Assembly (NCBI GenBank): GCA_002356515.1
Contig: AP017608.1
Span: forward strand, 16,492 to 80,491
Reading direction: 5' to 3'
Origin: Mesorhizobium loti
Lineage (GTDB): Bacteria > Pseudomonadota > Alphaproteobacteria > Rhizobiales > Rhizobiaceae
DNA: 64,000 nt
Shown here: piece by piece, positions 51,089-64,000 of the stretch
Layout: every line of letters starts with the position of its first letter
Position numbering within the stretch: the stretch's first letter is position 1
The notes under the pieces: generated by a model
Database searches by the model: none
The model's input: only the letters and a program-made list of their open reading frames with translations
Told to the model about the DNA's origin: nothing
Program-made: the position numbers and the translations under genes

Positions 51089-51431
51089 TGTTTTTGAGGG
51101 CTCGCGAAGTGGCCGTCTGTCACAATTTCGCGGCGTAAAAGAGAGAAATCAACCAGCAAAGTCCGGTTTCCGCTCATCGGCACACCATAGTAGCCATAGA
51201 ACGCAATGATATCCTGAAGCATAGGGTCCAGGCCGTCGAAAGGCGGCAAGACGATCGCTCGCCATGCCATGCAGCAGTGACAAGCGAGATATTCGCTCAA
51301 ACCAACGATAGGATATAATTCCTAATCCGTAAATGGAGAGCGTAGCCTTCACTTTGTAGCCTCCGGCGATCAACCATTGCGGGGTCGTCCGTCAATGTCT
51401 GAAACGATCAGCTGATGCCGGTTTGGCGCCC
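51089..51431. other. Stretch without a convincing gene
   Basis: A leftward frame of 76 residues (51070-51300) runs into the terminator and has no recognisable domain or clear ribosome site; overlapping frames compete. I do not call a gene. Confidence 0.35.
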
Positions 51432-51510
51432 TTTGCCGGGGGCTGTCGGTCGTATCCCGCCTGCGGCGGCGCTATGCTGATGCTCCTACGGCCGCCCTGT
51501 TGAACCGGTC
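51432..51510. repeat. Left copy of an about 80-bp direct repeat bounding the defence island
   Basis: GCCGGGGGC-GTC-GT, CCCGCCTG-GGCGGCGCTATGCTGA-GCTCCT and GGCCGCCCTGTT-AACCGGTC recur at 61188-61268 in the same order and orientation, about 9.75 kb away. Confidence 0.85.
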
Positions 51511-51517
51511 TCGGGGT

Positions 51518-51789
51518 CGCGAACCGGTGGATACCGTTTCGCCAAGCCTGGTATCATGTTGACCGAACTCGCGCCTGCCACCATGGTGCAAACGTCCTTG
51601 CTGGCTATCATCGATCGTGAGGAGCGAGTTAGGCTGAATGCAGCGATGGACGCCGTCAATGGGCGCTTTGGCCGGAACACGCTTGTGCCGGCAGCGATGG
51701 GGCTGAAACGATCCTGGTCAACAAAGTTCGACCGGAAATCGCCGTGTTTCCCCACGCGATGGGGTGAGTTGTGTCTGGTGGCAGCTTAA
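51518..51789 (+). pseudogene. umuC: umuC 3' fragment (left)
   Basis: The frame reads RTGGYRFAKPGIMLTELAP, then RVRLNAAMDAVNGRFGRNT, then KRSWSTKFDRKSPCFPTRWGEL and a stop. This is the C-terminal (little-finger/DUF4113) end of a UmuC-type Y-family polymerase; the catalytic part is absent. It ends 146 bp before the methyltransferase operon. Confidence 0.75.
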
Positions 51790-51935
51790 CCCAGTGCTTG
51801 TTTTGTGAGCACCGGTCGTTCTTGCCCGAATGCATACATCTTGGATTTGGGGTAAATCTTGAGGGACAAAGGACAATCGCCAGTGATCAAACCGACCATC
51901 TCTTGCCCCAGCTGTCCAGTTGGAGAGCGTAGCCG

Positions 51936-54707
51936 ATGAACGCGGTTGAAATTGAACAGGCGATATCGGCCCTTGCGGACCAGCCGTTTGACCACGACGA
52001 TTTCCCATATTTGTTTCTTCAGGCCTTCGGCAACAAGGAGACCACGCTAAAACGGTTGCGCGCCGGCGCATCGAACAAATCCGACGTGGGCGGTGTTCTC
52101 CAGACCAGCAATATCCACATCGCCGTGTCGCCGGCTGGAGAGGTTGGCAGGACGCTGGCGGCCCTGAGGTCTAGTCCAGCGACGGCCAGGGCGAAGGCAA
52201 AGTTTGTGCTGGCGACCGATGGCGAGGTGTTCGAGGCCGAGGACCTGACCAGCGGGGAAACCGTCGCGTGCGCTTATCCAGACTTCCCGGACCATTTCGG
52301 ATTTTTCCTGCCACTCGCAGGCATCACCACGGTTCAGCAGATCCGTGAAAGTTCGTTCGATATACGGGCTACGGGCCGCTTGAACCGGCTTTATGTCGAG
52401 CTCTTGAAGGAGAACCCGGAGTGGGGCACCGGCGAGCGGCGGCAGGACATGAATCACTTTATGGCGCGGCTGATCTTTTGCTTCTTCGCGGAAGATACCG
52501 ATATTTTCATGCAGTCAGGCCTGTTCACGGGCACGATCGAGCGAATGAGCGCCAGGGATTCGGCCGACACCCATACGGTGATCAGCGAGTTGTTCCGGGC
52601 CATGAACACCAAGATCGGAGACAGGGGAGGCGCCAGGCTGCCCCGCTGGGCTGATGTGTTTCCTTATGTGAACGGCGGGCTTTTTTCGGGTGGCACCGAG
52701 GTGCCGCGCTTCAGCAAGATTGCGCGCTCCTACCTTCTGCATATTGGCAATCTCGACTGGACCAAGATCAACCCAGACATCTTCGGTTCGATGATCCAGG
52801 CCGTCGCGGATGATGAGGAGCGCGGTGCGCTCGGCATGCATTACACCAGCGTGCCGAACATCCTGAAGGTATTGAATCCGCTCTTCCTGGACGATTTACG
52901 GGTCCAGCTGGAGGAGGCGGCGGAAAACCCCCGGATGCTCCTGAACCTGCGCAAGCGCATGGCCAGGATTAGAGTGTTCGACCCAGCCTGCGGCTCCGGG
53001 AATTTTCTGGTCATTGCCTATAAGGAGATGCGCGAGATCGAGGCGGAAATTAACCGGCGACGTGGTGAGCCCGATTGCCGTAGCGACATCCCCCTCACCA
53101 ATTATCGCGGCATTGAACTTAGGGACTTTCCAGCCGAGATTGCGCGCCTCGCGCTCATTATCGCTGAGTATCAGTGCGATGTGCTCTATCGCGGCCAGAA
53201 AGAGGCTTTGGCCGAGTTTCTGCCGCTCGATGCCCAGAACTGGATCACCTGCGGTAACGCGTTGCGACTCGACTGGCTAAGCACCTGTCCGCCGACCGGG
53301 ACGGGCGTGAAATTGCAAGGCGACGACCTGTTCAGTACGCCGGTCGATCAGGCGCAGATCGACTTCCAGAATGAAGGGGGCGAGACATACATCTGCGGCA
53401 ATCCGCCATACTTGGGGACCAAGTACCAGACGCAGCCTCAAAAGGCCGAAATCGCCAACGTATTCAACGCCGATCCTATAAATTTTGGCAACCTGGACTA
53501 CGTCGGAGGCTGGGTCAGATTGGCCGCTGACTATATCACGCGGAGCCCGCGCTCGTCGTTTGCGCTCGTGAGCACGACGAGCCTCTTCCAGGGGGAGCAG
53601 GCAGAGATCGTCTTTTGGATCCTTCAGCGTTTCGACCTTGCAATCGCTTGGTGTCACACCGCCTTCAAGTGGGCGAACCAAGCTACGAATAATGCAGGCG
53701 TTTCGTGCTGTATCGTCGGCATCTCACGAAAGGAAGATACCGTACAAAGGGCAATCTACGACGGCGACTCTGCCCGAACTGTCTCCAATATCGGTCCTTA
53801 CTTGGTTTCGATGCCTGACGTCGTGGTCACAAAGCGAGGCTCACCGTTGTCGACGGAACTTTCTCCGATGTCATATGGGAGTATGTCTAACGACAACAAC
53901 GCGTTCACGATTTCGTTCGATGCGTATCGAGAGGCACTGCGCGCGAATCCGGATAACGGCCGTATCCTTAAATTTTCAGTAGGCGGCAACGAGTTTATAA
54001 ATGGGATCGTTCGACCTGCAATATATATAGAGCCGGAGACGAAGCTCACTGATGAGCAGGTCGCTGAGTTCTCTGGTGTATTTGACCGCGTCAAAGAATA
54101 TCGAAGCTTGAGCCCACGTGCGGCCACGAAACGACTCAGCCAAACGCCGATGTATTTTGCCGAGCGGCGGCACCGTCCCGGGAGTAAGATTTTCGTTCCG
54201 CAAATTTTGTCTGAGCGGCGACCATACATTACGGCAGGTCTACTAGATGAAGATTCGCTGGTGATCGCGCCCCATATGCAGATCACGGATAGTAGGCTTC
54301 ACAACCTCGCTATCCTCTCCAGCAAGCTTCACCTCATTTGGGTGGCCACGGTTTGCGGTAAACTTGAAACGCGGCTGCGATATTCCAATACGCTAGGCTG
54401 GAACACCTTCCCGGTTCCGACACTAACCGAAAAGAACAATGCCGACCTCAAGCGCTGCGCCGAGGACATTCTGCTGGCGCGCGAGGCGCATTTCCCGGCG
54501 ACGATCGCCGATCTCTATAACTCGGACGAAATGCCTGCTGATCTGCGCGAGGCGCACGAGCGAAATGACGAAGTGCTGGAGCGCATCTATATCGGTCGAC
54601 GGTTCCGAAACGATACCGAGCGTCTGGAAAAGCTTTTCGAGCTCTACACCAAGATGACCGCCGTGCAGGGAGCGACCAATAAACAAAGGGCAGGGGTAAG
54701 CGCGTGA
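51936..54707 (+). CDS. MmeI-like class I DNA methyltransferase
   Basis: 923 residues, the size of single-chain type IIL/MmeI-like enzymes. Motif I FDPACGSGNFLVIAY (about 349-363) and motif IV ICGNPPYLGTKYQ (NPPY, about 488-500) mark an adenine-N6 methyltransferase; ALGMHYTSVPNILKVL before motif I is typical of this family, and the last 300 residues hold the target-recognition part. In the N-terminal domain, where MmeI has a PD-(D/E)xK nuclease, the corresponding TDGEVFEAEDL lacks the lysine, so it may not cut. GGAGAG precedes ATG 51936. Its stop overlaps the helicase start (GTGA). Confidence 0.85.
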   Translation: MNAVEIEQAISALADQPFDHDDFPYLFLQAFGNKETTLKRLRAGASNKSDVGGVLQTSNIHIAVSPAGEVGRTLAALRSSPATARAKAKFVLATDGEVFEAEDLTSGETVACAYPDFPDHFGFFLPLAGITTVQQIRESSFDIRATGRLNRLYVELLKENPEWGTGERRQDMNHFMARLIFCFFAEDTDIFMQSGLFTGTIERMSARDSADTHTVISELFRAMNTKIGDRGGARLPRWADVFPYVNGGLFSGGTEVPRFSKIARSYLLHIGNLDWTKINPDIFGSMIQAVADDEERGALGMHYTSVPNILKVLNPLFLDDLRVQLEEAAENPRMLLNLRKRMARIRVFDPACGSGNFLVIAYKEMREIEAEINRRRGEPDCRSDIPLTNYRGIELRDFPAEIARLALIIAEYQCDVLYRGQKEALAEFLPLDAQNWITCGNALRLDWLSTCPPTGTGVKLQGDDLFSTPVDQAQIDFQNEGGETYICGNPPYLGTKYQTQPQKAEIANVFNADPINFGNLDYVGGWVRLAADYITRSPRSSFALVSTTSLFQGEQAEIVFWILQRFDLAIAWCHTAFKWANQATNNAGVSCCIVGISRKEDTVQRAIYDGDSARTVSNIGPYLVSMPDVVVTKRGSPLSTELSPMSYGSMSNDNNAFTISFDAYREALRANPDNGRILKFSVGGNEFINGIVRPAIYIEPETKLTDEQVAEFSGVFDRVKEYRSLSPRAATKRLSQTPMYFAERRHRPGSKIFVPQILSERRPYITAGLLDEDSLVIAPHMQITDSRLHNLAILSSKLHLIWVATVCGKLETRLRYSNTLGWNTFPVPTLTEKNNADLKRCAEDILLAREAHFPATIADLYNSDEMPADLREAHERNDEVLERIYIGRRFRNDTERLEKLFELYTKMTAVQGATNKQRAGVSA

Positions 54708-56755
54708 ACAGTGAAGTGAAATCCGTACCGTCGATCTCGGTCTCCTACGCCCACACAGGCAATTCCGCCAAGGCCAACGAATTCGGCATGCGCCCGATGC
54801 AGGAGCGCGCCTACGAAAAGCGTGGCGAACAGTACCTGCTAATCAAATCGCCGCCGGCATCGGGCAAGAGCCGGGCGCTTATGTTTATTGCCCTCGACAA
54901 GCTTCGGAACCAGGGGCTCAAGCAGGCGATCATCGTCGTGCCCGAAAAGTCCATCGGCTCAAGCTTCAACGACGAGCCGCTGACGAAATACGGCTTTTGG
55001 GCCGACTGGACCGTTGCCCCCCGATGGAACCTCTGTAACGCGCCCGGCGCCGACGGCGGCAAGATCAACGCGTTGGGCGCCTTCCTCGTCAGCAGCGATA
55101 AGGTGCTTGTATGCACCCATGCCACCTTCCGCTTCGCCGTCGATAAGTTCGGTATCGAGGCGTTTGACGACCGACTGATCGCCGTGGACGAGTTCCATCA
55201 CGTCTCGGTCCACCCCGACAACAAGCTTGGCCTGCATCTGGGGCAATTCATTGCCCGGGACCGTGTGCATATCGTGGCGATGACCGGTTCCTATTTCCGG
55301 GGCGACGCGGACGCCGTGCTGTCGCCCGAGGACGAGTCCAAATTCGATACCGTCACCTACACCTACTATGAGCAGCTGAACGGCTACCAGTACCTGAAAG
55401 AGCTCGATATCGGCTATTATTTCTATTCGGGTCCCTATTCCGACGACATATTGAAAGTGCTGGATTCCTCGGAAAAAACCATCATTCACATTCCGAACGT
55501 CAATGCGCGTGAAAGCACCAAGGATAAGATCCGCGAGGTTGAGCACATCATTGAGGAGTTGGGCGACTGGCGGGGAACGGATCCAGCAACCGGTTTCCAG
55601 CTGGTAGCGACGCCAGAGGGCCGCGTGCTGCGGATCGCCGACCTGGTCGACGACGACCCCACCAAACGGGACCGCGTTTCCGCTGCTTTGAAGGATCCGG
55701 CGCAGAAGAACAACCGGGACCATGTGGACATCATCATCGCCCTTGGGATGGCGAAAGAAGGGTTTGACTGGATTTGGTGCGAGCACGCGCTGACGGTCGG
55801 CTATCGGTCGAGCCTGACGGAGATTGTCCAGATCATCGGCCGCGCGACACGCGACGCCCCCGGCAAGACCCGTACCCGCTTCACCAATCTGATCGCAGAA
55901 CCTGATGCCTCCGAGCAGGCCGTGACCGAGGCCGTCAACGATACGCTCAAGGCCATCGCGGCAAGCCTGCTCATGGAGCAGGTGCTAGCCCCGCGTTTCT
56001 CGTTCACGCCCAAGACGCCTGCCAGTGGGCCGGCCGAGGGGTTTGACTATGGCGAGAAAGGCTATGATCCCGGTCAATGTAACGTCGGGTTTGACCGCCA
56101 GAACGGGCAGTTCCAGATCGAAATCAAGGGTCTGGTCGAACCGAAAAGCAAGGAGGCGACCCGAATCTGCAAGGAAGACCTGAACGAGGTCATTGCCTCC
56201 TTCGTCCAGGATAAGACCACAATCGAGCGGGGCCTGTTCGATGCCGAGCTGGTGCCCGAGGAGCTCACGCAGCTCCGTATGGGCAAGATCATCAAGGACA
56301 AATACCCCGAACTTGATGCCGAGGACCAGGAGGCCGTCCGTCAGCACGCCGTGGCCGCTCTTGCTCTGACGCAGAAGGCCAAAGAAATCGCCTTGAGTGC
56401 AGCCGAGCCCGCCGCCGCCGGAAACACCGCCTTCATCCAGGGTGTTCGGCAATTCGCGATGGACGTGCGCGAGCTCGACATCGACATGATTGACCGCATC
56501 AACCCGTTCAGCGAGGCTTATTCGATCCTGGCCAAGACGATGAGCGAGGAAAGCCTCAAGCAGGTTGCGGCCGTCATAGCCGCCAAGCGGGTCAACCTGT
56601 CGCTCGAGGAAGCGCGGGAGCTGGCCAGGCGAGCCCTGGCGTTCAAGCATGAGCGCGGTCGCCTGCCGTCGATCACGTCGGCCGACGCGTGGGAAAAGCG
56701 CATGGCCGAAGGCGTCGCCTTTCTCGCGCGCAAGGCCAAAGAGGCGGCGCAATGA
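54704..56755 (+). CDS. DEAD/DEAH-box superfamily 2 helicase
   Basis: 683 residues from GTG 54704 (AGGGG upstream, 4-bp overlap with the methyltransferase). Motif I SPPASGKSRA (about 48-57), motif II AVDEFHHV (a DEFH box), motif III MTGSYF, and motif VI EIVQIIGRATRDA are all present, so an active ATPase is expected. The C-terminal 230 residues are helical without a known domain. Similar helicases accompany restriction nucleases and use ATP to move along or remodel DNA. It overlaps the nuclease gene (ATGA at 56752). Confidence 0.9.
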   Translation: MNSEVKSVPSISVSYAHTGNSAKANEFGMRPMQERAYEKRGEQYLLIKSPPASGKSRALMFIALDKLRNQGLKQAIIVVPEKSIGSSFNDEPLTKYGFWADWTVAPRWNLCNAPGADGGKINALGAFLVSSDKVLVCTHATFRFAVDKFGIEAFDDRLIAVDEFHHVSVHPDNKLGLHLGQFIARDRVHIVAMTGSYFRGDADAVLSPEDESKFDTVTYTYYEQLNGYQYLKELDIGYYFYSGPYSDDILKVLDSSEKTIIHIPNVNARESTKDKIREVEHIIEELGDWRGTDPATGFQLVATPEGRVLRIADLVDDDPTKRDRVSAALKDPAQKNNRDHVDIIIALGMAKEGFDWIWCEHALTVGYRSSLTEIVQIIGRATRDAPGKTRTRFTNLIAEPDASEQAVTEAVNDTLKAIAASLLMEQVLAPRFSFTPKTPASGPAEGFDYGEKGYDPGQCNVGFDRQNGQFQIEIKGLVEPKSKEATRICKEDLNEVIASFVQDKTTIERGLFDAELVPEELTQLRMGKIIKDKYPELDAEDQEAVRQHAVAALALTQKAKEIALSAAEPAAAGNTAFIQGVRQFAMDVRELDIDMIDRINPFSEAYSILAKTMSEESLKQVAAVIAAKRVNLSLEEARELARRALAFKHERGRLPSITSADAWEKRMAEGVAFLARKAKEAAQ

Positions 56756-57930
56756 CGGCCCTTTCCGACCTTGAATTGTTGGACGCGCTCGGCGTCGACA
56801 TCGAGCAGGACAAGGCCTCCGCCCGGTCTGCCCGCGACGAACGCATCATCGCGGGGTTTGAGGAGATCCAGCGTTTCGTAGAGCAGCACGGCCGCAGTCC
56901 GCAGCATGGCGAGGGCGGCGATATTTTCGAGAGAATCTATGCTGTGCGCCTCGATCGCCTGCGCGCTCTGGAAGACTGCCGCGTTCTTTTGGAACCTCTC
57001 GACCGCCAGAGGCTGTTGTCTGCCCCTTCAGGGCATCAAGCTGCCATAGCACCCGAGGATGACCACGAATTGCTGGCCCAGCTGGGTGTAAACCTCGGAG
57101 CAATAGACGACCTCACGGACTTGCAACACGTCCGATCGACGGCCGACCGGCGAGCTGCCGAAGACATTGCCAACCGGGAGCTTTGCAAGGATTTCGAGAC
57201 GTTTAAGCCCCTGTTCGAGCAGGTGCAGAAGGACCTGGAAACAGGGCTCCGGCAGACGAAGCCGTTTGCAATGAAGGCCGAAATCCAGCCCGGCCACTTG
57301 TTCATCGTCGGTGGCCAGAAGGCCTATGTTGCTGAAATGGGGGAGATATTCTCGAACGCCCAAGGTCGCACCGATGCGCGTCTGCGCGTCATTTTCGACA
57401 ACGGTACGGAAAGCAACCTGCTGATGCGCTCGCTGCAGCGAGCCCTCCATAAAGACGATGCTGGCCGGCGCATCTCCGATCCCGTCGCTGGGCCGTTGTT
57501 CACCCAGGAAAGCGAGGACGGGGACGAGGCGAGCGGAACGATCTATGTGCTTCGCAGTCAATCCAATGATCCCGCGGTCGTTGCAAACCGTGAAATTCTG
57601 CACAAGATCGGAGTGACCGGGGGTAGTGTTGAGCGCCGCATCGCCAATGCACGGCTCGACCCGACCTTCCTCATGGCTGATGTCGAGATAGTCGCCACCT
57701 ATGAGCTCTTCAACATTTCTCGCGCCCGGCTGGAAAACGTCATCCATCGGATCTTCGGCGCTGCCCGCCTGGATATCGAAATAAAGGACCGCTTCGGCAA
57801 TCCTATCATCCCGCGAGAATGGTTCCTGGTGCCTCGCTTCGTCATCGACGAAGCCATCGAGAAAATCAGAGACGGCACGATCGCCGGCTACGCATACGAC
57901 CCGAAGACCGGCACCCTTCGAAAATCATAA
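56752..57930 (+). CDS. GIY-YIG nuclease-family protein (T5orf172-like)
   Basis: 392 residues from ATG 56752. The C-terminal part shows the GIY-YIG outline: GTIYVLRSQ (the GIY strand), HKIGVTGGSVERRI (YIG-like with the catalytic Arg region) and LENVIHRIFGAARL (the glutamate helix), as in T5orf172/MUG113-type domains. The N-terminal about 250 residues are helical and unassigned; they could contact the helicase. It is the last gene of the three-gene operon and is the most likely source of DNA cleavage for it. Confidence 0.82.
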   Translation: MTALSDLELLDALGVDIEQDKASARSARDERIIAGFEEIQRFVEQHGRSPQHGEGGDIFERIYAVRLDRLRALEDCRVLLEPLDRQRLLSAPSGHQAAIAPEDDHELLAQLGVNLGAIDDLTDLQHVRSTADRRAAEDIANRELCKDFETFKPLFEQVQKDLETGLRQTKPFAMKAEIQPGHLFIVGGQKAYVAEMGEIFSNAQGRTDARLRVIFDNGTESNLLMRSLQRALHKDDAGRRISDPVAGPLFTQESEDGDEASGTIYVLRSQSNDPAVVANREILHKIGVTGGSVERRIANARLDPTFLMADVEIVATYELFNISRARLENVIHRIFGAARLDIEIKDRFGNPIIPREWFLVPRFVIDEAIEKIRDGTIAGYAYDPKTGTLRKS

Positions 57931-57959
57931 ATCTCTAGACTGTGAGGGTCGTCCCAAAG

Positions 57960-58142
57960 CACTCTTTGCCGGATCTCCGATCCAGTGGCGGCAACGGCGC
58001 GGCGATCGGACCGCCGTGCGCTACCTATTCATTGGGAACGGCGGCTGCCGGCACAAAGCGGTCTTGGTCGACGAAGTTTGAGCGGAATTCGCCGTCTTTT
58101 ACTACTCGGTGGACAGAATTGCCAAAGGTAGGGTGCTTTTAG
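57960..58142 (+). pseudogene. umuC: umuC 3' fragment (right)
   Basis: Frame ending KRSWSTKFERNSPSFTTRWTELPKVGCF, the DUF4113-type tail of UmuC. The DNA around 58046-58120 clearly matches 51690-51765, the left umuC fragment. Only the last about 40 residues are recognisable; upstream sequence is unrelated. It separates the methyltransferase operon from the PHP-SMC gene. Confidence 0.7.
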
Positions 58143-58208
58143 TACGAACAACTTGTCAAAGCCCAGTCTAAACTACAGAGTGTGCTTTCGGGGGGAGTGC
58201 AAGCGTCG

Positions 58209-61145
58209 ATGTTGTCAAAAGGTTCTGACTGGCTGCGGTGGGAGCCGCATATCCATGCACCGGGTACTGTGCTGGAGGATCGCTACCCTGCAGACGGGTG
58301 GGAAGCCTACATCACAGCGCTCGAAAATGCCTCACCGGCAATGCGGGCAATCGGCATTACGGACTATTGCGTTACCTCGTCGTACGAGCGCGTCAAAGCG
58401 GCAAAAGACGAGGGCCGCCTGAAGCAGTGCGAGTTCCTGTTTCCCAACGTTGAACTCAGGTTGGAGATGGGCACCGTAAAAGGCCATTTCGTGAATATCC
58501 ATCTTTTGGCCAAGCCGGAAGATCCCACGCACGTTGAAGAGCTGAACCGATTTCTTCGGCACCTCAAGTTTTCGACCGCCGAAGACGCATTTTGCTGTTC
58601 GCCAGAAGACCTGATCAGGCTGGGCAAGCGGACGGATCGAACAATTACCGACGACAAAGCGGCGTTGCGTCTCGGTGTGACGCAGTTCAAGGTTTCTCGG
58701 AGCGCGCTCCAAGATGCGTTCAGGAGCATGGAGTGGGCAAGGAACAACATTATTATTGCCGTGTCGGGCAACGCCGATGGAACCTCCGGCGTCCGGGACG
58801 GGGCAGACCGCGTGGTCAGGGAAGAGATCGAAAAGATCGCCCATCTGATCTTTGCCAGCAGCACCAAACAGCGAGATTTCTGGCTCGGCCAAGGTCCAGT
58901 AGCGACTCCGCAGGAGATCCTTGAGAGTTACGGTGGCCTGAAACCTTGCCTGTGGGGAAGCGACGCCCATGAGCTATCCTTGGTCGGAAAGCCCGCCGAG
59001 GACAGGCTGTGCTGGATCAAAGGCCAAGCGAGTTTCGATGGCCTTCGACAGGCCTGCATCGATCCCGAGCGCGCCTACGTAGGCCCGACGCCACCAAGCT
59101 GGTCGTCAGAGTCACAGACGATCGACCACATCAGGATCCATGGAGCACCTTGGGTGCGGACGCCTGACATCGGGCTAAATCCGGGACTGGTGACAATCAT
59201 AGGTGCGAGGGGTTCAGGAAAAACCGCCTTGGCCGACATCATCGCCGCCGGCTGTGACGCCTATTCTGAGGATATTGACCGCCCTTCCTTCCTGGAACGT
59301 GCACAAGAGCACCTGTCAGGGGCCGAGGTGTCCGTGAAGTGGCTGAGCGGAGAAACGTCAGACGCGAAGGATCTGGAACGTCCAGGTGCCGACCGGGACA
59401 CCTTCCCACGTGTTCGCTATCTCTCCCAGCAGTTTGTCGATCGGCTCTGCTCGCCGGAAGGCATGCCCCAAATGATCCAGGAGATCGAACGGGTCATTTT
59501 CGAAGCTCACACGGATCGGGACGGAACGATCAACTTCCATGAGTTGCTGGAACTTCGCGCCCAGGGGCATCGGGAGGCCCGCTTGCGCGAAGAAACCGCC
59601 ATGAACAACATTTCCGAGCTGATCGCGGCGGAGCGGGAAAAAATTACCGCCGTAAGTGGCCTGACGAAACAGATTGCCGAGAAGGATGCGTTGATCAAGG
59701 GGTATGAGAAGGATCGCGGCATTCTTGTTCCCTCCACAACGAGCACGGTCGTCGCCCAACGGCTGCAGGATCTCCTGGCGGCCGCAGATACGGTACGGGG
59801 ATATCTCAGGCATTACGCCAAGCAGCAGGCAGGCCTTGAGAACCTCCAGAGCGACGTTGTGGATCAACGGCAGAACCGTGCTCCGCAAGCCCTTCGGGAT
59901 TTGAGGGTCGCCCATGCCGCCAGCAAACTGGACGACTCTGACTGGGAGCGCTTCATGCTCAGCTTTACCGGGGATGTCGACGGGGCCATTAAAGCCAAGG
60001 CTGCGATGTCCAACACGGCGGTCGCCCGTTGGAAAGGCGCCGTACCCAGCCTGTTGGAAAACGGGAGTTTTGTGGTCGATGGCGCTGAACTGACCAAGCT
60101 TTCGCTGGCGGTGTTGGAGGCAGAGATCGAGCGTGTGCAGAAGCTTGTCGCGGCCGACCGACAGACAGCCGAGAAACTTGCCATCAATGCCAAGCGCATC
60201 ACGGAAGAGACGGCGAAACTTGCCGTCCTCAAGGAAAAGCTGACCGATAGCGAAGGGGCTGGGGCGCGCCGGTTGCAGCTGATCGAGGATCGCAAGGACG
60301 GCTACAAAAGGGTGTTCACGGCCATTTTGGCCGAAGAGACCGTCCTGAAGGATCTCTATGCCCCATTGATGGTGAGGCTGGCCACGCAGGGTGGAACCTT
60401 GGCGAAATTGTCGTTCACCGTGTCACGCGTTGCTGACGTCAAGGCGTGGGCGGACAAGGCGGAGAAGGAATTGTTTGACCTGCGAACAGGGCCGTTCCGG
60501 GGAACCGGCAAACTCCTGAAATATGCAAACGAAGAGCTCAAAAAAGCATGGGAAACGGGCGACGTCGAGGCCATTGCGGCAGCAATGGAAGCGTTTCGTG
60601 AAAAGCATCAGGAGGAGTTGCTTGAACCTGCGCCCGATCGGACCAAGGACGCAGATGGCTTCAAAAAGTGGCTGAAACGCTTTGCACAATGGCTGTATAG
60701 CTCCGACCACATTTCGATTGAGTACGGGATCAAATATGATGGGACGGACATCAAGAAATTGTCTCCGGGCACCCGGGGCATTGTCCTGATCCTGCTCTAC
60801 CTGGCTCTGGACGACGCCGATGACAAACCTCTGGTCATCGACCAGCCCGAAGAGAACCTGGACCCCAAATCGATCTATGACGAACTGGTGCCTCTCTTCC
60901 GGGCTGCGAAGCGGAAACGTCAAGTAATCATGGTGACCCACAATGCCAATCTGGTCATCAATACGGATGCAGACCAAATCATCATTGCCAATGTTTCCGA
61001 AATGACAGGGGACGGCCTGCCGGGAATTACATACCGGTCCGGTGGACTGGACCAGGCCGATATCCGCCAAAGTGTCTGTGAGATACTGGAGGGCGGAGAG
61101 GCAGCGTTTCGAGACCGCGCCCGCAGGCTTCATATCAAGTTTTAG
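58209..61145 (+). CDS. PHP-domain/SMC-like ATPase (TrlF family)
   Basis: 978 residues from ATG 58209 (GGGGGAG upstream). The N-terminal PHP phosphoesterase domain has WEPHIHAPGT (HxH), IGITDY and WGSDAHE, the expected metal-site motifs. Walker A VTIIGARGSGKTALAD (about 335-350) follows, then a coiled-coil region (about 440-720) and the SMC/ABC-type C-terminus with LSPGTRGIVLILLYLAL (signature) and VIDQPEENLDPKSIYDEL (Walker B, D-loop), MVTHNANLV (H-loop). Such proteins are ATP-driven nucleases or DNA sensors found in defence islands. It forms a stand-alone unit behind the right umuC fragment. Confidence 0.9.
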   Translation: MLSKGSDWLRWEPHIHAPGTVLEDRYPADGWEAYITALENASPAMRAIGITDYCVTSSYERVKAAKDEGRLKQCEFLFPNVELRLEMGTVKGHFVNIHLLAKPEDPTHVEELNRFLRHLKFSTAEDAFCCSPEDLIRLGKRTDRTITDDKAALRLGVTQFKVSRSALQDAFRSMEWARNNIIIAVSGNADGTSGVRDGADRVVREEIEKIAHLIFASSTKQRDFWLGQGPVATPQEILESYGGLKPCLWGSDAHELSLVGKPAEDRLCWIKGQASFDGLRQACIDPERAYVGPTPPSWSSESQTIDHIRIHGAPWVRTPDIGLNPGLVTIIGARGSGKTALADIIAAGCDAYSEDIDRPSFLERAQEHLSGAEVSVKWLSGETSDAKDLERPGADRDTFPRVRYLSQQFVDRLCSPEGMPQMIQEIERVIFEAHTDRDGTINFHELLELRAQGHREARLREETAMNNISELIAAEREKITAVSGLTKQIAEKDALIKGYEKDRGILVPSTTSTVVAQRLQDLLAAADTVRGYLRHYAKQQAGLENLQSDVVDQRQNRAPQALRDLRVAHAASKLDDSDWERFMLSFTGDVDGAIKAKAAMSNTAVARWKGAVPSLLENGSFVVDGAELTKLSLAVLEAEIERVQKLVAADRQTAEKLAINAKRITEETAKLAVLKEKLTDSEGAGARRLQLIEDRKDGYKRVFTAILAEETVLKDLYAPLMVRLATQGGTLAKLSFTVSRVADVKAWADKAEKELFDLRTGPFRGTGKLLKYANEELKKAWETGDVEAIAAAMEAFREKHQEELLEPAPDRTKDADGFKKWLKRFAQWLYSSDHISIEYGIKYDGTDIKKLSPGTRGIVLILLYLALDDADDKPLVIDQPEENLDPKSIYDELVPLFRAAKRKRQVIMVTHNANLVINTDADQIIIANVSEMTGDGLPGITYRSGGLDQADIRQSVCEILEGGEAAFRDRARRLHIKF

Positions 61146-61187
61146 CACGATCGGCGGATTGCGACGCACGTCACTCATAAGGCACCC

Positions 61188-61268
61188 GTCGCCGGGGGCG
61201 GTCAGTCCCGCGTCCCGCCTGTGGCGGCGCTATGCTGACGCTCCTTAGGCCGCCCTGTTCAACCGGTC
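61188..61268. repeat. Right copy of the about 80-bp direct repeat
   Basis: Partner of 51432-51510. It ends in CCCTGTTCAACCGGTC, exactly where the IS66 element begins; in the left copy the sequence continues with TCGGGGTCG. Confidence 0.85.
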
Positions 61269-61348
61269 GTACGCCTACGACGAAGGCCGCCTACTGACGC
61301 GTACCTTAAGGCGTTAATGTCCGCTTAGATTAAGTGGACACTTAGCGA

Positions 61349-61852
61349 ATGAAGTATCTGGCTATGGAGCGGCCGTCGGCAGTGGAAGCGAGCACGCCTG
61401 CGGCTGTGCCGCTGCCGCCGGGTGCGGGCCGACAGCGGACGCGTCGCTCCTGGACGGTCGAGCAGAAGCTGGCGATCGTGCGTGAGGTGCAGGAGTCCGG
61501 TGATCCGGTGTCGATTGTGGCGCGGCGTCACGACATGAACGCGAACCACTTGTTCATCTGGATGAAGCAAGCCCAGCAAGGGCGATTGGGCCGAGCCAAC
61601 TCGGTGCCTGAGACCCCTCCGATCGCCTTCATTGACATGGGTGTTGTCGGTCCCAGCGTGCACGATGTAGAGCCGGAAGAGCCGGCTCCTGCGCGATCGC
61701 ACTCTGAAGTACCAGCTACGATCAGCCAAGCGGTGTCTCTCGGTGGCCGGATGGAAATCGTCGGGGCCAACGGTCGGCGTGTGATCGTCGACCGTACTGT
61801 CGACGTAAGTGTCCTGCTGCGGATCTTGCAGGGGCTGGAAATGCTGCGATGA
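61349..61852 (+). CDS. tnpA: IS66-family accessory protein TnpA
   Basis: 167 residues with the OrfA HTH region RRSWTVEQKLAIVREVQESGDPVSIVARRHDMNANHLFIWMKQ. Its end overlaps the tnpB start (ATGA at 61849), consistent with translational coupling. Needed for IS66 transposition in addition to TnpC. Confidence 0.93.
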   Translation: MKYLAMERPSAVEASTPAAVPLPPGAGRQRTRRSWTVEQKLAIVREVQESGDPVSIVARRHDMNANHLFIWMKQAQQGRLGRANSVPETPPIAFIDMGVVGPSVHDVEPEEPAPARSHSEVPATISQAVSLGGRMEIVGANGRRVIVDRTVDVSVLLRILQGLEMLR

Positions 61853-62193
61853 TCCCGACAGAAGGCGTGCGTGTGTGGTTAGCCACAGGCTACACCGACA
61901 TGAGATGTGGCTTTCCATCACTGGCGCTACGGGTGCAGGAGGTCCTCAAACATAATCCCCTTGGGGGCAACCTGTTTTGCTTCAGGGGGAAACGCGGAAA
62001 TTTGTTGAAGGTCATCTGGCATGATGGCCAAGGTGCATGTCTGTTCACAAAAAGACTCGAGCGCGGCCGCTTCATATGGCCAACAGTTGAGGGTGGAGCT
62101 GTGACAGTATCTTCTGCACAGCTGAGTTATCTCTTGTCTGGCATAGACTGGCGGAACCCTCAGGAAACGTGGCGTCCAGCTCGGGTTGGGTAG
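61849..62193 (+). CDS. tnpB: IS66-family protein TnpB
   Basis: 114 residues: GVRVWLATGYTDMRCGFPSLALRVQEVL, then GNLFCFRGKRGNLLKVIWHDGQGACLFTKRLERGRFIWP. This is the complete IS66 Orf2/TnpB (not the IS200/IS605 nuclease of the same name). Confidence 0.94.
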   Translation: MIPTEGVRVWLATGYTDMRCGFPSLALRVQEVLKHNPLGGNLFCFRGKRGNLLKVIWHDGQGACLFTKRLERGRFIWPTVEGGAVTVSSAQLSYLLSGIDWRNPQETWRPARVG

Positions 62194-62237
62194 CATTTTT
62201 TAATTGAAAATACAATGGAATGTGATTCAATCGGCGC

Positions 62238-63923
62238 ATGACTTCGAAGCCGGTTGAGCTCCCCTCGGATCTTGCCAGCGCCTACGTGGCGCTGCTGGTT
62301 GAGCGTGAGGCGTTGCAGGCTGAACGCGATGTGGCGGTCACGGATGCTGCCAGCTGGCAGGCTGAAGCCGCCAACGCGAAGGCCATGCTGTCCGACAACG
62401 AGGCGCGGATTGCGCATCTCGAGCTGCGCATCGAGAAGCTGAAACGCGAACTGTACGGGCAGCGCTCCGAGCGCACGGCGCGGCTGATCGAGCAGTTGGA
62501 ATTGGAGCTCGAAGACCTCGTCACCTCGGCGACCGAGGATGAGCTTGCCGCGCAGGCTGCGGCGGCGAAGACGCAGACGGTGCGCCCCTTCACGCGCAAG
62601 CGACCGGTGCGCAAGCCATGGCCGGATGACATCGAGCGCGAGCGCATCGTCATCGAGCCACCCAGCGCCTGCGCCTGCTGCGGCGGATCCCGGCTGTCCA
62701 AGCTGGGCGAGGATGTGACCAAGACGCTGGAAGAGATCCCGCGCCGGTTCAAGCTGATCGAGACGGTGCGCGAAAAGTTCACCTGCCGCGACTGCGAGAA
62801 GATCACCCAGCCGCCGGCGCCGTTCCATGCCACGCCGCGCGGCTTCATCGGTCCCCAACTGCTGGCGACAATCCTGTTTGACAAGTTCGGCATGCATGCT
62901 CCACTCAACCGCCAGAGCGCGCGCTTCAAGGCTGAGGGGATCGACTTGCCGGTGTCGACGCTGGCCGATCAGGTCGGCCACGGAACCTTCGCCGTCATGC
63001 CGCTCTTCCAGCTGATCGAGCGCCATGTGCTCGCGGCCGAGCGCCTTCATGGCGACGACACCACCATTCGCATCCTGGCGAAGGACAAGTGCGCGACCGG
63101 GCGCATATGGACCTATACGCGCGACGACCGTCCCTTCGCCGGGCCTGCGCCGCCGGCGGCGATCTATTACGCCTCGAGCGACCGGCGCGGCGAGCGTCCT
63201 CAGAAGCATCTGGCTGGGTACGCCGGCATCCTTCAGTGCGACTGTTACAGTGGCTTCGAGCCGCTGTTCGACCCGCAGCGGAAGGAGCAGCCGATCACGC
63301 CGGCCTTTTGCTACGCCCATGCACGGCGAGGATTCTTCGAATTGGCTGACATCGCGAAAGAGGCCCGGGATGGCAAGAAGGGCAAACCGATCTCCCCGAT
63401 CGCGCTGGAGGCGGTCAGGCGCCTCGACGCGCTGTTCGAGATCGAGCGCGCCATCAACGGCCGCAGCGCCGACGAGCGGTATGCCGTGCGGCAGGAGAAG
63501 AGCAAACCACTTCTCGACGACATGCACGCCTGGTTGCTCCGCCAGCGCGATACCCTCTCGCGCTCTTCCGAGGTCCTGAAGCCGATCAACTACATGCTCA
63601 GGCGCTGGAACGACTTCGCCCGCTTCATTGACGACGGCAGAATCTGCCTCAGCAACAACGCGGCCGAAAGAGCGCTGCGCGGTATTGCTCTGGGAAGGCG
63701 CAACTGGACCTTCGCCGGTTCCCAGCGTGGCGCCGACCGCGCCGCCGTCATGCTCACCCTCATCACCACGGCACGCCTCAACGACGTCGACCCGAAAGCC
63801 TGGCTCGCCGACATCCTTGCCCGCATTGCCGATCTTCCCGTCTCGCGTCTGCACGAACTACTGCCCTGGCAATGGAAGCTCCTGAGCCAAGCCGACAAGC
63901 CCGCCGGTCAGCAGGCCGCCTGA
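62238..63923 (+). CDS. tnpC: IS66-family transposase TnpC
   Basis: 561 residues. N-terminal coiled coil, zinc-binding cysteines (SACACCGGS, CRDCEK) and the DDE core with HGDDTTIRILA, LQCDCYSGFE and NNAAERALRGIALGRRNW. The C-terminal tnpC segment (RLNDVDPKAWLADILARIADLPVSRLHELLPWQW) is intact. Confidence 0.95.
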   Translation: MTSKPVELPSDLASAYVALLVEREALQAERDVAVTDAASWQAEAANAKAMLSDNEARIAHLELRIEKLKRELYGQRSERTARLIEQLELELEDLVTSATEDELAAQAAAAKTQTVRPFTRKRPVRKPWPDDIERERIVIEPPSACACCGGSRLSKLGEDVTKTLEEIPRRFKLIETVREKFTCRDCEKITQPPAPFHATPRGFIGPQLLATILFDKFGMHAPLNRQSARFKAEGIDLPVSTLADQVGHGTFAVMPLFQLIERHVLAAERLHGDDTTIRILAKDKCATGRIWTYTRDDRPFAGPAPPAAIYYASSDRRGERPQKHLAGYAGILQCDCYSGFEPLFDPQRKEQPITPAFCYAHARRGFFELADIAKEARDGKKGKPISPIALEAVRRLDALFEIERAINGRSADERYAVRQEKSKPLLDDMHAWLLRQRDTLSRSSEVLKPINYMLRRWNDFARFIDDGRICLSNNAAERALRGIALGRRNWTFAGSQRGADRAAVMLTLITTARLNDVDPKAWLADILARIADLPVSRLHELLPWQWKLLSQADKPAGQQAA

Positions 63924-64000
63924 CCTTCACACAACGCCATCATAGAGCCCGCCGCGCGCACGCGCATGTGCCAATCATGCGGCCTTCGCCGTATGCGTAC

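What the first reader, a model, noticed from the sequence alone, without database searches (positions are those of the whole stretch)
51432..61268. Defence island: MmeI-like methyltransferase + helicase + GIY-YIG nuclease operon, next to a PHP-SMC ATPase
Three genes overlap by 4 bp each (GTGA, ATGA) and encode an adenine-type methyltransferase, an SF2 helicase with a DEFH box and a GIY-YIG nuclease. The methyltransferase's N-terminal nuclease motif looks dead (TDGEVFEAED without lysine), while a separate nuclease and a helicase are present. This suggests that modification and restriction have been split into three polypeptides, with ATP-dependent restriction. A TrlF-like PHP-SMC ATPase follows as a likely second system. 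I cannot name an established system with exactly this composition.
Basis: partly seen in the sequence, partly recalled or inferred. Interest (0 to 1): 0.85.

Follow-up and report, generated by a model that had tools for sequence, protein, structure and literature searches.

The report
Three-gene restriction operon, dnmA-yeeB-yeeC type
A rhizobial plasmid carries a three-gene DNA-methylation-and-cutting operon of a kind already described in Bacillus and Vibrio; in the relatives examined, the methylase lacks its own scissors whenever a separate motor and nuclease are encoded beside it.

Summary
The trio is real: an MmeI-family adenine methyltransferase (51936-54707), an SF2 helicase (54704-56755) and a T5orf172/GIY-YIG nuclease (56752-57930), overlapping by 4 bp each. 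It is not new. It is the DnmA(YeeA)-YeeB-YeeC cluster, known from Bacillus subtilis and already proposed in print as Type I-like restriction-modification (RM). PADLOC-DB 2.0.0 names only the methyltransferase (as Type IIG).

The nuclease domain is dead, but the motif site is residues 53-65, not TDGEVFEAED. Among 46 relatives drawn by the methyltransferase domain alone, 15 keep the motif and none has the helicase in the stretch held. Of 29 that lost it, 28 have the helicase; the other contig ends there.

A point not found in the papers searched: the methyltransferase-helicase junction is opened in 45 of 75 close relatives, often by unrelated genes. Some of these (RhuM, YhcG/DUF1016) also occur inside Type I RM operons. 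The helicase-nuclease junction is opened in 1 of 79. The window's own copy has no cargo.

Most likely function: ATP-dependent RM with modification and restriction on separate polypeptides. Activity here is untested, and the B. subtilis cluster showed none. TrlF next door is a separate gene, rarely linked.

The parts
51936..54707 (+). DnmA/YeeA-type MmeI-family N6-adenine DNA methyltransferase (923 aa): dead MmeI_N domain, spacer, MTase (DPACGSGNFL 349-358, NPPY 489-492), TRD, C-terminal domain
   Evidence: Pfam; PADLOC PDLC03598 834 bits, residues 5-909; MmeI 5hr4 E 2.3e-120; motif positions
52092..52130 (+). site aligned to the D-x9-ExK motif of solo MmeI-like enzymes; G53, A63, S65 in place of D, E, K
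   Evidence: alignment, positions
54704..56755 (+). YeeB-type SF2 helicase/translocase (683 aa), GTG start overlapping the methyltransferase stop
56752..57930 (+). YeeC-type protein (392 aa): helical N-terminus, SH3/Tudor-like middle (weak), C-terminal T5orf172/GIY-YIG domain with conserved Y265, KIG 285-287, R296, E328
58182..61145 (+). TrlF-family AAA/SMC-like ATPase (987 aa), separate neighbouring gene
   Evidence: NCBIfam NF045780 680 bits (cut-off 350)
51425..51526 (.). R1, copy of a ~100-bp repeat that elsewhere lies 184-189 bp upstream of ardC
51545..51800 (+). 3' remnant of a DUF4113 (umuC-type, name recalled) gene
   Evidence: 81% over 251 nt to the end of a DUF4113 gene of Mesorhizobium sp. 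INR15
58056..58112 (+). short second match to the same remnant, downstream of the trio
   Evidence: 75% over 57 nt, E 7e-6
61181..61268 (.). R2, second copy of the repeat, interrupted by IS66; it continues at the contig start (C4:1-93)
61269..64000 (+). IS66 element (three genes) with an 8-bp target duplication across the contig ends
   Evidence: Pfam

Best explanation
The operon is a plasmid-borne DnmA-YeeB-YeeC restriction-modification cassette. Inferred mechanism: the methyltransferase reads a non-palindromic site through its variable TRD and methylates one adenine (the habit of MmeI and DnmA). Its former nuclease domain no longer cuts and is kept as a structural or docking domain for the restriction module. 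On an unmodified site it recruits YeeB, an ATP-driven SF2 DNA translocase, which brings the partner nuclease YeeC (GIY-YIG) to cut away from the site. Because only one strand is methylated, half of the sites of a newly replicated duplex would be unprotected, so cutting should need two convergent sites (Type III/Type ISP logic, recalled). Shown here: gene content, overlaps, motif loss, conserved active-site residues, conservation and linkage. Inferred: methylation target, docking, translocation, cutting, phage defence.
For: Motif linkage in 46 loci drawn by PF20473 alone: motif kept in 15, helicase in 0 of 15 (11 of them with more than 5 kb downstream in hand); motif lost in 29, helicase in 28 and nuclease in 26 of 29, the misses being ends of contigs or stretches; two could not be scored and have both genes. 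Helicase motifs and the GIY-YIG R296 and E328 are invariant in 14 diverse members. In 2923 pairs with helicase core identity over 0.78, the dead domain averages 0.75, the MTase domain 0.70, the TRD 0.43; its divergence tracks the helicase core (Spearman 0.57; spacer 0.52, MTase 0.20, TRD 0.00). The M-R junction carries cargo of kinds also seen in Type I RM operons. Literature: B. subtilis DnmA makes GACGm6AG (PMC7261158); dnmA and yeeB deletions in Vibrio crassostreae raise sensitivity to some phages (as told in PMC9973331).
Against: The B. subtilis trio did not restrict plasmid transformation or three phages, and its site is not depleted in phages; the authors call it a relic. I found no paper showing restriction by this trio in vitro (searches; listings and passages only). 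The docking idea is weakly supported: over all 35 trio sequences the dead domain (0.56) is no better conserved than the MTase domain (0.58; mean ratio 0.92, solo 0.97); it is ahead only in pairs of similar MTase identity (0.69 against 0.65; solo 0.58 against 0.59), and the C-terminal domain is better conserved than either in close pairs (0.82). Pairs are not independent. Motif loss and the trio mark one clade against another, possibly a single event. One of the five loci without a methyltransferase (L175) has 3.6 kb upstream and none there. The YeeC model is weak overall (pTM 0.38), with no Foldseek match at E <= 1e-3.
Confidence: 0.75

Rival explanations
1. The methyltransferase is in effect an orphan epigenetic regulator; helicase and nuclease are a relic without restriction activity, as proposed for B. 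subtilis.
For: B. subtilis deletions show no restriction or phage phenotype, and DnmA affects some promoters (PMC7261158, PMC9973331).
Against: All three window ORFs are open with catalytic residues conserved. Helicase cores average 0.81 pairwise identity over 86 loci plus the window (loci chosen as the best matches and viral contigs), with relatives of 80-82% identity in Bacillota. Gene order is kept in most loci. Vibrio deletions have a phage phenotype.
Confidence: 0.15
2. A DNA-damage or replication-linked maintenance system, in which YeeB-YeeC processes branched or R-loop DNA and the methyltransferase marks self, with phage defence secondary.
Against: Patchy distribution (6 of 61 genomes of the genus sample, own included), plasmid and viral carriage and defence-type cargo fit mobile defence better.
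Confidence: 0.07
3. The four genes including TrlF act as one system.
For: TrlF follows 251 bp downstream on the same strand, and the whole is bounded by the R repeats.
Against: TrlF (over 100 bits) lies in the fetched stretches of 1 of 123 helicase-centred loci (L157); some of those stretches are short. A second remnant match lies between the trio and TrlF.
Confidence: 0.03

Closest known systems
Bacillus subtilis DnmA(YeeA)-YeeB-YeeC (PMC7261158, PMC9973331)
   Same: Gene content and order as described there; MmeI-like methyltransferase without the nuclease motif; SF2 helicase; T5orf172/GIY-YIG protein
   Different: B. subtilis YeeB and YeeC are said to lack C-terminal stretches and show no restriction; the window copy is plasmid-borne. 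Not aligned directly here: no B. subtilis sequence was fetched (PF20473 does ring in the B. subtilis control genome).
MmeI (Type IIL/IIG, 5hr4)
   Same: Spacer, MTase, TRD and C-terminal parts align (query residues 85-910)
   Different: MmeI is one polypeptide with an active N-terminal PD-ExK nuclease (as told in PMC7261158); here it is lost and two further genes are added
Type I RM (HsdM-HsdS-HsdR)
   Same: Separate modification and motor genes, cargo genes between them
   Different: No separate HsdS; motor and nuclease on two proteins; GIY-YIG instead of a fused PD-(D/E)xK nuclease (recalled)
Type ISP (LlaGI/LlaBIII) and Type III RM (recalled)
   Same: Single-strand modification with an ATP-driven motor (inferred for the trio)
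   Different: Domains on three proteins; GIY-YIG nuclease

Membership tests
DnmA-YeeB-YeeC cluster | methyltransferase, helicase, T5orf172/GIY-YIG gene in this order and orientation | tested here: met
DnmA-YeeB-YeeC cluster | MmeI-like methyltransferase without the PD-ExK motif | tested here: met
DnmA-YeeB-YeeC cluster | m6A at a non-palindromic site made by the methyltransferase | not testable with these tools
   needs a methylome
MmeI / Type IIL | MTase and TRD domains of MmeI | tested here: met
   Pfam, 5hr4
MmeI / Type IIL | N-terminal PD-ExK nuclease motif in the same polypeptide | tested here: not met
   G53, A63, S65 against D, E, K in 15 solo relatives. The D-x9-ExK spacing is read from those relatives; MmeI's own motif is recalled, since the 5hr4 alignment starts after it
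Type I RM | HsdS specificity subunit and HsdR with its own N-terminal nuclease | tested here: not met
   no such Pfam, NCBIfam or PADLOC match in the three proteins at the thresholds used
Type I RM | ATP-dependent translocation and cutting away from the site | not testable with these tools
   biochemistry needed
DISARM | DrmMI with DrmA and DrmB (recalled) | tested here: not met
   best DrmMI match partial (82.6 bits, against 834 for the IIG model); the helicase matches no DrmA model at E <= 0.001
any PADLOC-DB 2.0.0 system | models for the helicase and the nuclease | tested here: not met
   helicase: PbeA 17 bits only; nuclease: none
TrlF family (58182-61145) | full-length NF045780 match over cut-off | tested here: met
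   680 bits against 350, residues 13-984

The most novel reading that the evidence does not exclude
DnmA-YeeB-YeeC is a distinct, widespread type of ATP-dependent restriction-modification. A dead MmeI nuclease domain has been turned into the dock for a helicase plus GIY-YIG module. The junction between the modification and restriction genes is a standing slot for guard or toxin genes (RhuM, YhcG/DUF1016, PDDEXK_4, Schlafen-like, GmrSD-like), of which RhuM and YhcG are shared with Type I operons. A member such as the window's would then be the empty-slot form.
Probability: 0.4. Interest if true: 0.6.

Novelty: new member of a known kind. Interest (0 to 1): 0.35.

Why it matters
Yet its restriction activity is disputed, and PADLOC-DB 2.0.0 matches only the methyltransferase, as Type IIG. 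The link between nuclease loss and the helicase-nuclease pair, and the cargo slot, make 'relic or active RM' directly testable with compact, open plasmid-borne copies like this one.

Full report
WHAT IS THERE. The three ORFs overlap by 4 bp each as described. Protein 1 is a full-length MmeI-family enzyme (five Pfam domains over cut-off; 5hr4 E 2.3e-120). Protein 2 is an SF2 helicase with weak Pfam matches but complete motifs. Protein 3 ends in a T5orf172/MUG113 GIY-YIG domain, as do 29 of 29 members of alignment A4. The window is the last 64 kb of an 80,491-base contig, C4, in an 8.45-Mb genome of four contigs. The contig start repeats the 8 bases next to the IS66 at the window's end, so C4 is most likely a circular plasmid cut at the IS66. 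It carries a T4SS coupling protein and a MobA/MobL relaxase over their Pfam cut-offs. The left flank matches 57 plasmid records, all of rhizobia and agrobacteria by name (Sinorhizobium 25, Mesorhizobium 16, Agrobacterium 8, Rhizobium 6, Ensifer 2).

WHAT IT IS. The helicase matches 264 plasmid records; one Acetobacter record names it YeeB. All three hits opened show methyltransferase, helicase and GIY-YIG genes in this order, one with an extra ORF between the first two. PMC7261158 and PMC9973331 (passages; outline and abstract of the second) describe the same trio in B. subtilis as dnmA-yeeB-yeeC. They credit Morgan et al. 2009 with noting MmeI homologues without the nuclease motif next to yeeB and yeeC, and with suggesting a Type I-like system. 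PMC9973331 also reports that dnmA and yeeB deletions in Vibrio crassostreae raise sensitivity to some phages, and that the B. subtilis trio does not protect.

TEST OF THE DEAD-NUCLEASE CLAIM. To avoid choosing loci by the helicase, I searched for PF20473 in 289 genomes of the class (37 with a match at E <= 1e-20) and 398 of the phylum (30 at E <= 1e-50). I fetched 46 loci: every place except the window's own, and the 21 best other places. Not analysed: three partial places (135-218 bits) and 22 weaker ones (below 124 bits). Profiles for helicase and nuclease were run over all frames. Result: motif kept in 15, helicase in 0 of 15 (four have about 1 kb or less of downstream sequence); motif lost in 29, helicase in 28, nuclease in 26 (L063 ends after the methyltransferase; the stretches of L086 and L092 end at or inside the helicase); two loci without an N-terminus have both genes. 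The window's residues at the three catalytic positions are G53, A63 and S65. This is a split between clades, so the number of independent losses is not established.

CONSERVATION. In 86 loci with all three genes plus the window, the TRD is the most variable part (0.43 in close pairs), as expected for changing specificity. In close pairs the dead domain stays at 0.75 and follows helicase divergence (Spearman 0.57), as does the spacer (0.52); the nuclease gene's two parts give 0.46 and 0.38, the C-terminal domain 0.31, the MTase domain 0.20 and the TRD 0.00. The control is mixed: over all pairs the dead domain is not better conserved than the MTase domain (0.56 and 0.58; solo 0.53 and 0.55), but in pairs with MTase identity 0.5-0.75 it is (0.69 and 0.65 in 367 pairs; solo 0.58 and 0.59 in 64 pairs). 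So there is no sign of decay of the dead domain; a role as a dock is possible and unproven. Profile comparison also finds a short shared motif in the helicase C-terminus and the nuclease N-terminus (E 1e-5, probability 82%; three control comparisons E 0.056-0.18).

CARGO SLOT. Of the five without, four have 1 kb or less upstream and one (L175) has 3.6 kb. The gap to the helicase, measured between open frames, exceeds 150 nt in 45 of 75. In 39 of these the longest non-overlapping ORFs include one of at least 80 aa on the same strand; in six they are on the other strand, though a shorter same-strand ORF exists in all 45. The gap between helicase and nuclease exceeds 150 nt in 1 of 79. In the PF20473-drawn set the figures are 13 of 30 and 0 of 28; in viral contigs 9 of 32 and 1 of 39. 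ORFs from the 54 opened loci form nine families with several members, plus singletons. I scanned 30 cargo ORFs against Pfam: 18 have no family. Of 20 scanned against PADLOC, strong matches are RhuM = PDC-S05 (L057, L133), YhcG/DUF1016 = PDC-S02 (L122), PDDEXK_4 = PDC-S26 (L066, L088), PDC-S67 (L090) and a PD-Lambda-2_B-like HTH-M78 protein (L092); two match weakly and eleven not at all. Pfam adds a Schlafen-AlbA_2 protein (L109), a GmrSD_N protein (L126), a second RhuM (L084), a reverse transcriptase (L086) and pentapeptide repeats (L060). Six plasmid relatives of the RhuM and YhcG cargo, chosen by me from two lists of 16, were opened: three lie inside Type I operons between hsdM and hsdR (one list row already showed this) and three do not. 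I did not find this slot described in the papers searched (listings, and passages of two papers), but bioRxiv and most subscription papers are not held. The window's own copy has no cargo there.

TRLF AND THE FLANKS. The fourth gene is TrlF-family. TrlF lies near the trio in 1 of 123 helicase loci, so it is a neighbour, not a part. Trio and TrlF lie between two copies of a ~100-bp repeat. The same holds for one place on the own chromosome. On C4 the second copy continues as an ardC leader for 93 bases past the IS66, but ardC itself gave no tblastn match at E <= 1.

VERDICT. An open, ordinary member of a known, poorly tested kind of RM cluster. The new points are the quantified link between nuclease loss and the trio, and the one-sided cargo slot seen in relatives.

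Noticed in passing
51425-51526, 61181-61268 and L021 1-93: A ~100-bp repeat that is the upstream leader of ardC in other Mesorhizobium plasmids (the nine best of 58 records) bounds the defence genes; ardC itself was not found on this contig.
   Followed up: partly
L008 1501-1578 (own chromosome): A fourth copy of the repeat lies between a methyltransferase ORF and a NodA-like ORF (both named by eye), so the repeat is not tied to ardC alone.
   Followed up: no
51545-51800 and 58056-58112: A 3' piece of a DUF4113 gene before the trio and a short second match after it; possible insertion scar.
   Followed up: partly
61269-64000: IS66 inserted in the repeat with an 8-bp target duplication spanning the contig ends; the contig is probably a circular plasmid of 80,491 bp.
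   Followed up: yes
relatives L057, L066, L084, L088, L109, L122, L126, L133 and others: Unrelated, often defence-type genes between methyltransferase and helicase, hardly ever between helicase and nuclease.
   Followed up: partly
L113, L119, L125, L161 against the window: Bacillota helicases are 80-82% identical to this alphaproteobacterial one, suggesting spread across phyla.
   Followed up: no
L026: In one same-genus genome the methyltransferase and helicase frames are interrupted while the nuclease matches in one piece.
   Followed up: no
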